A stretch of 34,296 nt of DNA, taken from Solirubrobacterales bacterium. Its GTDB lineage: Bacteria > Actinomycetota > Thermoleophilia > Solirubrobacterales > Solirubrobacteraceae. The translations under genes and the position numbers were made by a program. Location: the NCBI GenBank assembly GCA_019244395.1, contig JAFASQ010000140.1:1-34296 (forward strand), in the 5' to 3' direction. The notes beneath the pieces were generated by a model. That model was not told where the DNA came from and did no database searches. It saw only the letters and a list, made by a program, of their open reading frames with translations. Shown piece after piece: positions 16,588 to 25,111 of the stretch; the first letter of the stretch is position 1; each line of letters begins with the position of its first letter.

Positions 16588-17580
16588 GTGCCCACCTTCT
16601 GCCGCCACAACCGCCTGATCCAGAACTGCCCGATCTGCTCGCGCGAGCAGGCGATCGAGCTTCGCCCGATCGTGACCTCGAGCGCGCCGCGGACCGGCCA
16701 ACCGCGGCCGAGCCCGGCGGGGCCGCGCCGAGCGCGCCCGGCCGCGGCGCAGCGTGCCGGCGCAGGAGGAGGCGTCACCGTCCGGCGTGTGGCCCGGGGC
16801 TCGGAGGACGGGTACCGCAACTCGCTGGTGATCGGCCTGAAGTCCAGTGCGGATGCGCGGCGCCTGGCCGAGGAGATCGCGTTCGCCGAGCACCGGCTGA
16901 GGGTGCTCGAGCACGCGCCGCCGGGCCTCTACGCCGAGGTGGCTGATGCCGGGGCCAACCTGGAAGAACGCACGTGGCTGGCCTTCTTGATCGCCTACCT
17001 GGGCCCGCTCGAGGGCGAGCATCCGTTCGCCGAGATCACCCGCTCCAGGACGTCCTGGGCGTCCGGACAATCACCGAGCCTGGAGGGCATCGGGACGGGG
17101 CCGCGGACCGCGCACGACCCGGCGCGCGGCCCGCGCACGCTCGACGCCTACCGGATGTGGGCAGGCCGGGCCGGCTCCCAGGCGGTGGCCTTCACCGGGG
17201 AAGCCGCCTGGACGCCCGAGCGCCGGTTCGCCCGGGCGTTCGAGCGGCTCGCGCTGCCGGGCCTGCACCGGGACGCCCGGTTCGAGCTCTTGGTCAGTCT
17301 GGGGCGGCTCGGGGTCTACGACGTACGGGCGGCGTCGCTGGCCCTCGGGGGCGTGAACGACGTCACCGTCGGGGCCAAGCGGGCGTTCGGGATCGGCGAT
17401 CCCCTTCTGCTCGAGCGGCGGGCATCGGACCTCGCGGGCGCCTGCGGAATCCCGCTCGAGACGCTCGATCTCGGCCTGCACAACTGGCAGCGCGGCGAAC
17501 GAGACACGGTCGGGTTGGGCGTCGACTCCGCGCCTGAACCGGAGGCTGTGGCCGGCGTGCAAGCGGCGCTCGGTTTGTGA
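16588..17580 (+). CDS. Unknown protein with N-terminal zinc-binding motif
   Basis: I do not recognise this 330-residue protein. It begins with C-x-H-x7-C-x2-C (FCRHNRLIQNCPICSREQ), which looks like a small zinc knuckle. A Pro/Arg/Ala-rich linker of about 45 residues follows, then a folded domain of about 260 residues with alternating helices. This contains VIGLKSSADARRLAEEI, RTWLAFLIAYLGPLEG, TLDAYRMWAGRAGSQAVAFTG and, near the end, LETLDLGLHNWQRGE. No catalytic signature is evident. GTG 16588 puts the zinc motif at the extreme N-terminus; GAGGAG lies only 2 bases before it, while TAGGCT at 16574-16579 would suit a leaderless start. Codon usage looks like that of its neighbours. Confidence 0.75.
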   Translation: MPTFCRHNRLIQNCPICSREQAIELRPIVTSSAPRTGQPRPSPAGPRRARPAAAQRAGAGGGVTVRRVARGSEDGYRNSLVIGLKSSADARRLAEEIAFAEHRLRVLEHAPPGLYAEVADAGANLEERTWLAFLIAYLGPLEGEHPFAEITRSRTSWASGQSPSLEGIGTGPRTAHDPARGPRTLDAYRMWAGRAGSQAVAFTGEAAWTPERRFARAFERLALPGLHRDARFELLVSLGRLGVYDVRAASLALGGVNDVTVGAKRAFGIGDPLLLERRASDLAGACGIPLETLDLGLHNWQRGERDTVGLGVDSAPEPEAVAGVQAALGL

Positions 17581-17628: not shown

Positions 17629-18546
17629 ATGCGTCGCGCGATCATTCCGCTCTCGGTCCTCGCCGCCGCTGCGGTCTGCGTGCTGGCCATAGCCGGCTCG
17701 GCGGGCGCGGCGGCGCGCGCGCCGCGCATCGTGTGCCCCGTCTCGAGCGCGCCCATCGTGCCGTGCTGCCCGGTTCCGACGCAGCCCGCTGCCGGCAGCA
17801 GCTCCGACGTCCAGCCGCTCTGCTGCCCGCCCACGGCGAGCAGCCCGACGGCGTGTTGCGTGGGCGCCACCACGCCCTGCTGCGTCAATGCCACCACGCC
17901 CTGCTGCGTCAATGCCAGCGCGCCCTGCTGCACGTCCACCTGCTGCCCGCCCGGCGGCTGCTGTCCGACCCCATGCACCCCCGGCAGCCTGACCATCGCG
18001 TCCGCGCCGAATCCCTCCACGGCCGGGCGCACGGTGGTGATCTCGGGCGCCCTCGTCGGCAACCCGGTCTCGGGCGCCCAGGTCGTGCTGTGGGGCAGGC
18101 TCGCCGGCCACTCGAGCTTCCAGAAGATGGCCCAGTCCACAACCGACAGCTCTGGGCGATACACCTTCGCGCTGCCGCGCGGAGCGGTGATGACCGATCA
18201 GGCGTGGTACGTCGCCTCGAATGGCGTGCACAGCGCGACGCTGCAGCAGCACGTCGACGCGCTGGTCGGCCTGTCCTCTTCGACGCACGCGGCGACGGTT
18301 GGCCAACCGGTCCGGCTGCGAGGTCACCTCACGCCTGCTCACGCGGGGGAGACCGTGCTGATCGAACAGCGCCGGGGTGGCACTTGGGGGGTGATCGCGC
18401 GGGCGAAGCTCAGCCGTACCTCGAGCTACGCGATCTCGCACCGCTTCTCGCACCCGGGCACGGTCGGGTTGAGAGCGGTGCTGCCGGGCGACACGCGTAA
18501 CGACTTATCGGTCTCGTCCACCTTCACGCTGACCGTCAAGCCGTAG
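17629..18546 (+). CDS. Secreted protein with vicinal-cysteine (CC) repeats and Ig-like domains
   Basis: Of unknown function, 305 residues. It has a clear signal peptide: basic MRRA, a hydrophobic run to about residue 25, then AGSAGAAARA for cleavage. Residues 35-115 hold nine Cys-Cys pairs in a Pro/Thr/Ser-rich setting (PCCP, LCCPP, ACCV, PCCV twice, PCCT, TCCPP, GCCP), including three 8-residue tandem units. Two beta-sandwich domains then follow, about 118-208 (with GALVGNPVSGAQVVLWGRL and SSGRYTFALP) and 210-305 (with LRGHLTPAHAGETVLIEQR). These resemble bacterial Ig-like or carboxypeptidase-regulatory-like folds of surface proteins. No sortase motif or anchor is present. The CC pairs could form disulfides or bind metal; this is inference. 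Confidence 0.8.
   Translation: MRRAIIPLSVLAAAAVCVLAIAGSAGAAARAPRIVCPVSSAPIVPCCPVPTQPAAGSSSDVQPLCCPPTASSPTACCVGATTPCCVNATTPCCVNASAPCCTSTCCPPGGCCPTPCTPGSLTIASAPNPSTAGRTVVISGALVGNPVSGAQVVLWGRLAGHSSFQKMAQSTTDSSGRYTFALPRGAVMTDQAWYVASNGVHSATLQQHVDALVGLSSSTHAATVGQPVRLRGHLTPAHAGETVLIEQRRGGTWGVIARAKLSRTSSYAISHRFSHPGTVGLRAVLPGDTRNDLSVSSTFTLTVKP
17860..17931 (+). repeat. 24-bp tandem repeat encoding the CC units
   Basis: Three in-frame 24-bp units encode VGATTPCC, VNATTPCC and VNASAPCC. Units two and three are identical apart from the codons for TT versus SA. Recent unit duplication is likely. Confidence 0.85.
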
Positions 18547-18644: not shown

Positions 18645-19100
18645 ATGTCACTCTGCTTCATCGAACCTCAGGACGCCATCCGCGTGATCGCAGAGTCGGT
18701 GGGGCGCGAGGCGCGCCGCCAGATCCTCGGCGAAGTGGTGCGGGCCTGGGTGGACGAGATCCCTGAGTCCGAGCTCGAGTCGCATTACGCCAAGGCGCTC
18801 GCCGACCTCGACGAGCACGACCTGTCGCTCCTCGCGGCCTGGCACGCATCGCTCGAGGTGGGGCATCCGCTGCCCAACCGCGAGTTCGTGGTCAACGTGT
18901 TCCCGTCACTGGGCGACCACCGGCGCGAGGCGCTCAAGATCGCCGCCGGCTTCCGCGGCGAGGAGGCGTTCGAGGCCGGTGTGGGCGAGGATCAGGCGTT
19001 CGATACCGTGCTGCCCTGGCTGTCCGAGGCGCGGTGCATCGAGCTGGCCAAGGAGTGCCTCGAGCTGTACTGCTGGGACCGGCTCGGCGTCGATAACTAA
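18645..19100 (+). CDS. Small unknown acidic protein
   Basis: A 151-residue protein that I do not recognise. It is acidic and predicted mostly helical, with segments such as ILGEVVRAWVDEIPESELESHYAKAL and LSEARCIELAKECLELYCW. It has no signal peptide and no membrane segment. GGAG at 18636-18639 lies 5 bases before the ATG, a normal ribosome site, and codon usage matches its neighbours, so it is probably a real gene. It is convergent with the STAS-HATPase gene (15-bp gap) and not linked to it. Four cysteines are present without a metal-binding spacing. Confidence 0.65.
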   Translation: MSLCFIEPQDAIRVIAESVGREARRQILGEVVRAWVDEIPESELESHYAKALADLDEHDLSLLAAWHASLEVGHPLPNREFVVNVFPSLGDHRREALKIAAGFRGEEAFEAGVGEDQAFDTVLPWLSEARCIELAKECLELYCWDRLGVDN

Positions 19101-24052: not shown

Positions 24053-25111
24053 ATGGGGCGTTCGGAGATGCACGGTAACGAGGCCGGCAAAGGCGACAGC
24101 GAGATCTCGCCCGATCTCGAAAGCCAGACGGCGGAGCTGGTCGGTGCGCGGGCCAGGGAGGAAGAGCGCTCGGCACGGCGTTTCGGAGCCAGTCGCGTCT
24201 TGTCGGCGGCCGATCGCGAGCGCATCCTCAAGGATGCGCGCGAGATCGAGTTCCCGGCCGCCCTGCGGGGCTACGACCGCGCCGCCGTGGATCGCTACGT
24301 GGAGAAGATGAGCCGTCTCATCACCGAGCTCGAGATGTCCTCCTCGCCCGAGGCCGCGGTTCGGCACGCGCTGGACGAGGTCAGCGACGAGACCCGGGAC
24401 ATCCTGCAACGGGCGCACCAGACCGCCGAAGAGATCACCGCGCGCTCGCGCGCCAAGGCGGACGATCGGCTCCAGACGGCCGAGCGTGAGAGCCGGGAGC
24501 TGCGGGAGGCCGCCGAGCGCCAAGCGGCCGAGATGCGCGACGCGGCCCGGGACGAGGCGAGCGGAGTGCGCGAGACGGCGGCGCGTGAGACGGGCGAGCT
24601 GCGAGCGGGCACCGAGCGCGAGGTGGCCGAGCTGCGCGAAGCCGCGCGGAGCGAGGTCGCGGAGCGGCGCGAGGCGGTGGATCGTGAGATGACCGAGCTG
24701 CGGGAGACCACCGCGCGGCAGGTCGCCGAGATGCGCGAGAGCGCCGAGCGCGAGACCCAGCAGCTGCGCTCGGCCACGCAGCGTGATACTGAGGAGGCGC
24801 GCGCGAGCGCGCGGCGCGACGCCGAGGAGATGATCGAGGCGGCCGAGACGCGGGCGCGCGAACTGGCCCGGAGCGCGGAGGCGATCTGGCGCGAGCGCCG
24901 CCGCCTGATCGAGGACATGCGCGCGGTCGGCGAGCAGCTGGTGGCCATTGGCGAGGCCGAGGGCAAGCGGTTCCCGCGCTTCGGCGAGGAGGGATCGGAG
25001 GTCGCCGGCCTGCTACGCGACCCGCACTCAGCGGTGGCCGCAGGGCTCCCGCGCGAGCCGGCCAAGCTCGAGGAGCAGGCAAACGGGAGCCCTGAGGTGG
25101 TGCCCGGCTGA
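24053..25111 (+). CDS. DivIVA-domain protein with a long hendecad coiled coil
   Basis: 352-residue cytoplasmic scaffold-type protein. Residues 62-95 (AREIEFPAALRGYDRAAVDR and following) match the DivIVA N-terminal membrane-curvature-binding segment, though an N-terminal extension of about 60 charged residues precedes it. Residues 135-277 are thirteen 11-residue repeats rich in Glu, Arg and Ala. The C-terminal 60 residues are not coiled coil. The start ATG 24053 follows GGGAG (24041-24045) by 7 bases. DivIVA relatives recruit cell-division or growth-zone proteins in Actinomycetota; the lack of FtsZ or division genes nearby means the site of action is not clear. The upstream 147-bp gap holds divergent promoters with no certain boxes. 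Confidence 0.85.
   Translation: MGRSEMHGNEAGKGDSEISPDLESQTAELVGARAREEERSARRFGASRVLSAADRERILKDAREIEFPAALRGYDRAAVDRYVEKMSRLITELEMSSSPEAAVRHALDEVSDETRDILQRAHQTAEEITARSRAKADDRLQTAERESRELREAAERQAAEMRDAARDEASGVRETAARETGELRAGTEREVAELREAARSEVAERREAVDREMTELRETTARQVAEMRESAERETQQLRSATQRDTEEARASARRDAEEMIEAAETRARELARSAEAIWRERRRLIEDMRAVGEQLVAIGEAEGKRFPRFGEEGSEVAGLLRDPHSAVAAGLPREPAKLEEQANGSPEVVPG
24455..24883 (+). repeat. Thirteen 33-bp (11-residue) coding repeats
   Basis: In-frame units such as ESRELREAAER, EVAELREAARS, EMTELRETTAR and QVAEMRESAER run without gaps from residue 135 to 277. The 11-residue period points to a hendecad coiled coil, which twists less than, or opposite to, a heptad coil. Confidence 0.85.

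What the first reader, a model, noticed from the sequence alone, without database searches (positions are those of the whole stretch)
17629..18546. Secreted protein with nine vicinal-cysteine pairs
Cys-Cys dipeptides at nearly regular spacing in a Pro/Thr-rich segment, three of them in a 24-bp tandem duplication, are joined to two Ig-like domains. Adjacent cysteines cannot easily bond with each other, so a cross-linked surface layer, a metal-binding thread or a redox-sensitive stalk are possible. I do not know a described family with this layout.
Basis: partly seen in the sequence, partly recalled or inferred. Interest (0 to 1): 0.6.

Follow-up and report, generated by a model that had tools for sequence, protein, structure and literature searches.

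The report
Secreted protein with chained cysteine pairs
A soil bacterium (order Solirubrobacterales) encodes an apparently exported protein made of two immunoglobulin-like domains and an N-terminal tail of eight cysteine pairs, whose strict one-two-two-…-two-one cysteine rule is kept in every relative with such a tail and suggests a chain of small loops, each closed by a disulfide bond.

Summary
Three lie in a 24-bp tandem array; two Ig-like domains follow. In all seven the tail obeys one rule: single Cys, n Cys pairs, single Cys (n = 8, 7, 6, 6, 5, 3, 2). The rule also holds, with n = 1, in seven Ig-Ig-phosphoesterase (PF04185) proteins. Shortest spacing between Cys runs is 3 residues; Cys codons change only synonymously between close orthologues. 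Six of the seven genes share a genomic slot that in other genomes is empty or holds a phosphoesterase, with or without Ig domains. Best reading: the gene descends from a secreted phosphoesterase that lost its enzyme domain while its two-disulfide cap expanded into a chain of disulfide-closed loops, serving as a stiff, protease-resistant spacer for the Ig pair. Export and disulfides are inferred; connectivity and function are untested; metal binding or intermolecular cross-linking are not excluded. No Pfam, NCBIfam or PDB match covers the tail, and it was seen in one genus only.

The parts
17629..18546 (+). CDS, 305 aa: exported-looking protein with Cys-pair tail and Ig-like pair
17629..17715 (+). 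signal-peptide-like N-terminus, about residues 1-29 (cleavage site not determined)
   Evidence: read from sequence; similar N-termini in the orthologues
17734..17976 (+). Cys tail, residues 36-116: C-(CC)8-C, loops of 9,17,9,6,6,6,3,4,3 residues
17866..17931 (+). 24-bp tandem array, 2.8 copies (unit encodes ATTPCCVN); carries three CC; not present in the G023 orthologue's sequence
17986..18231 (+). Ig-like domain 1, about residues 120-201
   Evidence: AlphaFold strands 120-197; CarboxypepD_reg-like below cut-off
18271..18537 (+). Ig-like domain 2, residues 215-303, Big_3_5-like
   Evidence: below curated cut-off
16588..17580 (+). upstream flank of the slot: aGPT-Pplase3-like gene
18645..19100 (+). 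downstream flank of the slot: 151-aa protein conserved across the order, no family match

Best explanation
An exported, non-enzymatic Ig-pair protein. Its N-terminal tail is a linear chain of small loops, each closed by a disulfide: every Cys pair bonds once to the run before it and once to the run after it, and the two single cysteines end the chain (C36-C46, C47-C65, C66-C76, C77-C84, C85-C92, C93-C100, C101-C105, C106-C111, C112-C116, or the local swap within a pair). The chain works as a stiff, protease-resistant spacer or cap in front of the Ig pair. The gene derives from a secreted PF04185 phosphoesterase with a C-CC-C cap and Ig pair that lost its enzyme domain, while the tail gained or lost loops in whole units. 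Shown: the Cys rule and its conservation, purifying selection, shared slot, domain architectures. Inferred: export, oxidation, connectivity, spacer role, direction of domain loss.
For: Rule C-(CC)n-C in all 14 tails examined, n = 1 to 8, without exception; this equals the bond counts of a linear chain (ends one, inner nodes two). Shortest loop 3 residues in 44 loops. Length changes between orthologues add or remove whole CC-loop units, the 24-bp array being a recent case. Cys columns of the tail: 7 synonymous and 0 nonsynonymous differences in two orthologue pairs; tail dN/dS 0.23 and 0.29. Tail has almost no charged residues and no His or Met. VKOR gene in the own genome and in 28 of 31 genomes searched; Actinobacteria commonly export proteins with even Cys numbers, oxidised by MdbA/VKOR (PMC9974433). 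The slot between the 16588 and 18645 genes holds the CC gene in six genomes, Ig-Ig-PF04185 in G009 (n=1), G027 and G436 (no Cys motif) with G025 compatible, and a PF04185-type protein without Ig in G003.
Against: No disulfide was observed; the loop-entropy model favours the chain far above uniform but gives only about 0.1-0.2 to neighbour-only bonding for n of 6 to 8. AlphaFold does not fold the tail. G023 has one extra Cys in the Ig region, so not every mature protein is even. The Ig tree does not resolve whether the stand-alone CC proteins are one clade; only four firmly are. No anchor or partner identified.
Confidence: 0.45

Rival explanations
1. Cross-linking protein: the Cys pairs bond between molecules (or to other surface proteins), building an insoluble extracellular layer, as keratin-associated proteins do in hair and EDCRP in feathers.
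For: Pro-containing CC repeats at 8-11 residue spacing with species-specific copy number are the described layout of avian EDCRP and resemble KRTAPs (PMC4423139); copy number varies here as well.
Against: The strict single ends, even Cys number and a loop floor of 3 are not needed for random cross-linking; the same motif with only one pair caps enzymes, where network formation is unlikely.
Confidence: 0.2
2. Each Cys pair forms a vicinal disulfide (eight-membered ring) and the two single cysteines bond end to end; the tail would be a redox-sensitive or ligand-binding strip.
For: Gives the same even count and would also tolerate gain or loss of any pair; vicinal disulfides exist (PMC7145985 and literature cited there).
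Against: Vicinal disulfides are unusual in stably folded proteins and strained; does not explain a loop floor of 3, nor an end-to-end bond spanning from 14 to about 80 residues.
Confidence: 0.1
3. Metal-binding thread: reduced Cys pairs bind soft metals such as Cu(I), Hg or As outside the cell.
For: 18 cysteines in 81 residues; vicinal thiols bind soft metals (general knowledge).
Against: Apparently exported into an oxidising setting with VKOR present; no His, Met or CXXC/CXC series; no metal-resistance genes among the ten neighbours scanned.
Confidence: 0.1
4. Disulfide-rich tail without defined connectivity, a Pro/Thr/Cys-rich spacer whose exact role is loose (for example protease resistance only).
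For: Low-confidence fold; sequence between cysteines drifts.
Against: Cys order and minimum spacing are kept while all else drifts; Cys codons under purifying selection.
Confidence: 0.15

Closest known systems
PF04185 phosphoesterases with N-terminal Ig pair, same genus (L176, L003, L019, L158, L160, L161)
   Same: Homologous Ig pair; N-terminal C-CC-C motif before it; L176 sits in the same genomic slot
   Different: They keep the enzyme domain and have one Cys pair; the window protein has no enzyme domain and eight pairs
Avian EDCRP and mammalian KRTAP (feather and hair Cys-rich proteins)
   Same: CC at about 8-residue spacing, Pro in the repeats, variable copy number (PMC4423139)
   Different: Intracellular, animal, no Ig domains described there, extra single Cys inside repeats (CCDPCQ), cross-linked between molecules; no homology detected
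Fungal hydrophobins (from general knowledge)
   Same: Secreted, contain C-CC-C elements
   Different: Fixed eight-Cys pattern C-CC-C-C-CC-C with another connectivity; no Pfam match here
Big_3_5 bacterial Ig-like domains (PF16640)
   Same: Second domain matches over 87 of 88 positions
   Different: Below curated cut-off; the family model has no Cys tail

Membership tests
PF04185 phosphoesterase | catalytic domain (HVVIIMQENRSFDQYFGT region) | tested here: not met
   absent from the 305-aa protein, and only 98 bp lie between it and the next gene; present in slot homologue L176, E 3.4e-65
Big_3_5 (PF16640) Ig-like | score above curated cut-off | tested here: not met
   28.3 bits vs 35.5
Ig-like beta-sandwich fold | two consecutive beta-sandwich domains | tested here: met
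   AlphaFold strands 120-304; Foldseek top hits are Ig pairs
KRTAP / EDCRP-like | sequence homology to keratin-associated families | tested here: not met
   no Pfam match for two tails at E 10
KRTAP / EDCRP-like | intermolecular disulfide cross-linking | not testable with these tools
   needs protein
Hydrophobin | eight-Cys pattern C-CC-C-C-CC-C | tested here: not met
   pattern is C-(CC)8-C
Metallothionein-like | CXC / CXXC clusters | tested here: not met
   only CC, with loops of 3 or more residues between runs; metal content not testable
Lipoprotein or sortase substrate | lipobox or LPXTG with C-terminal anchor | tested here: not met
   by reading the translation: the sequence before C17 (AAAV) is not a canonical lipobox and C17 is missing in G019 and G007; the C-terminus is LTVKP

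The most novel reading that the evidence does not exclude
A previously undescribed bacterial linker type: an expandable linear chain of disulfide-closed loops written by the rule C-(CC)n-C, which grows or shrinks by whole loops while every cysteine stays paired, and which arose as an enzyme was turned into a structural Ig protein.
Probability: 0.35. Interest if true: 0.65.

Novelty: new variant of a known kind. Interest (0 to 1): 0.45.

Why it matters
If right, the Cys order alone predicts the disulfide map, and relatives with 1 to 8 pairs form a natural length series for measuring how chained disulfide loops set stiffness and stability. It also gives a readable case of an enzyme losing its catalytic domain and becoming a structural surface protein, in a poorly studied soil lineage. 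Range is narrow: one genus.

Tried and rejected
No tblastn match in plasmids. PDB by sequence: none for the full protein or the tail. The named-genome scan gave one orthologue, in a Solirubrobacterales MAG contig of the same length as G023's (8,751 bp), and one weak Ig-only match. A DNA pattern for three spaced CC codons was no more frequent than its reversed control, so it cannot map the rule genome-wide. AlphaFold did not fold the tail. Loop-entropy pairing model: chain favoured but not decisive. Full-text search for an existing description of such a bacterial repeat found none among the titles listed. Other two-domain Ig proteins of the order lack the Cys tail. Considered and rejected: pure GC composition effect (Cys order kept with synonymous codon changes).

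Full report
What is there. The ORF at 17629-18546 encodes 305 residues. Cysteines lie at 17 (hydrophobic N-terminal stretch), 36, then pairs at 46, 65, 76, 84, 92, 100, 105 and 111, then 116: eight pairs, not nine, flanked by two single cysteines. The tail (residues 34-117) holds 18 Cys and 17 Pro with Thr, Ser, Ala and Val, one Asp, and no His, Met, Lys, Arg or Glu. A 24-bp tandem array at 17866-17931 carries three pairs. Composition shuffles reach eight pairs in about 3 of 100,000 trials, and the full order in none. Residues from about 120 on are two beta-sandwich domains.

Homologues. The window lies in a genome of 580 contigs (G000:C460); the nearest named record is a Solirubrobacterales MAG. 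Within the 28 genomes held for the genus, stand-alone relatives with the tail occur in G000, G023, G019, G007, G010, G001 and G020. Profile searches of 146 genomes of the family, 399 of the class and 396 of the phylum gave tail-level matches only in this genus; the other matches inspected are to the Ig domain. The class and phylum sets are samples, and only the best first-look candidates of each genome were scored.

The rule. In all seven stand-alone proteins the tail reads single Cys, n pairs, single Cys, with n = 8, 6, 7, 6, 2, 5, 3. The same rule with n = 1 appears before the Ig pair of seven Ig-Ig-phosphoesterase proteins (L176, L003, L019, L158, L160, L161, L163; in L163 the last Cys lies inside the first Ig domain). 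A further phosphoesterase group has one Cys before the Ig pair and one inside Ig1 (L004, L159, L162, L063), which I read as n = 0; that is inference. Outside the rule lie only C17 of the signal region and one extra Cys in the Ig part of G023. Loop lengths run from 3 to 17; none of 44 is shorter than 3, the first is 7-10 and the second 10-17 apart from the n = 1 forms.

Why a chain. Counting each Cys run as a node, the rule 1-2-2-...-2-1 gives the bond counts of a linear chain in which each run bonds once to each neighbour. Inserting a pair inside a loop, or duplicating a loop-plus-pair unit, leaves all other bonds in place and the total even; the 24-bp array is such a duplication, and orthologues differ by whole units. 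This argument does not exclude vicinal disulfides with an end-to-end bond, which obey the same count; the loop floor and the growing end-to-end span speak against that. An independent-loop entropy model puts the chain far above uniform chance but does not single it out for large n.

Selection and export. Between G000 and G023, and between G019 and G007, tail dN/dS is 0.23 and 0.29 and Cys columns show 7 synonymous and no nonsynonymous differences. The N-termini look like Sec signal peptides by eye. VKOR, the oxidase that re-oxidises MdbA/DsbA-type enzymes, is in the own genome and in 28 of 31 genomes searched, in line with the even-Cys exported proteins of Actinobacteria (PMC9974433).

Origin. 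The gene sits between an aGPT-Pplase3-like gene (16588) and a highly conserved 151-aa gene (18645). The same slot holds the CC protein in G023, G019, G007, G010 and G020. In about 14 other genomes of the genus the two flanking genes lie roughly 60-210 bp apart with no room for it (coordinates). In G009 the slot holds the n = 1 Ig-Ig-phosphoesterase, in G027 and G436 (another genus; the two N-termini printed are identical, so mis-binning is possible) an Ig-Ig-phosphoesterase without the motif, in G025 split contigs are compatible with the same, and in G003 a PF04185-type protein without Ig domains but with a Cys pair just before the enzyme domain. On the Ig tree the CC proteins lie inside the group containing the phosphoesterase fusions, apart from the four-Ig proteins (97/94); only the n = 8, 6, 7, 6 proteins form a firm clade. 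Loss of the enzyme domain is the simplest history, but its direction and number of events are not resolved. G001's CC protein lies elsewhere in its genome.

Function. With no enzyme domain, no lipobox, no LPXTG and no C-terminal transmembrane anchor visible, the most likely role is structural or binding: an Ig pair held off by, or protected with, a disulfide-built spacer. Cross-linking as in feather EDCRP, which shows CC at 8-11 residue periodicity and species-specific repeat numbers (PMC4423139), is the main rival. The resemblance is of layout only; no Pfam match was found for two tails.

Verdict. A real, conserved and unusual cysteine rule in an otherwise ordinary class of exported Ig-domain proteins; mechanism plausible but unproven; narrow distribution.

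Noticed in passing
window 18645-19100: A 151-aa protein with matches of about 55-97% identity in 60 of 61 genomes of the order, with no Pfam or NCBIfam match: a conserved uncharacterised protein.
   Followed up: partly
L171 (G001:C371), + strand ORF from 764: Short ORF ending MRELTIHELDSELAEQLPARELMCCCQPPSCCSPCCPPPPCIDVCCNISACVSLTA, which looks like a RiPP precursor with a leader and a Cys-pair core.
   Followed up: no
L172 (G001:C281) and L173 (G001:C139): Other Cys-rich, CC-containing proteins with a different Cys order.
   Followed up: no
window 17866-17931: The repeated unit and its neighbours encode N-x-T/S sequons (VNATTP, VNASAP) between Cys pairs; G019 has NGT at a similar place. Whether glycosylated is unknown.
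   Followed up: no
L175 (G027:C49) and L235 (G436:C87): Identical printed N-terminal stretch of an Ig-Ig-phosphoesterase in genomes assigned to two genera; possible mis-binning.
   Followed up: no
window 24467-24738: 99-bp period tandem repeat, 2.7 copies, 73% matches, not part of this finding.
   Followed up: no
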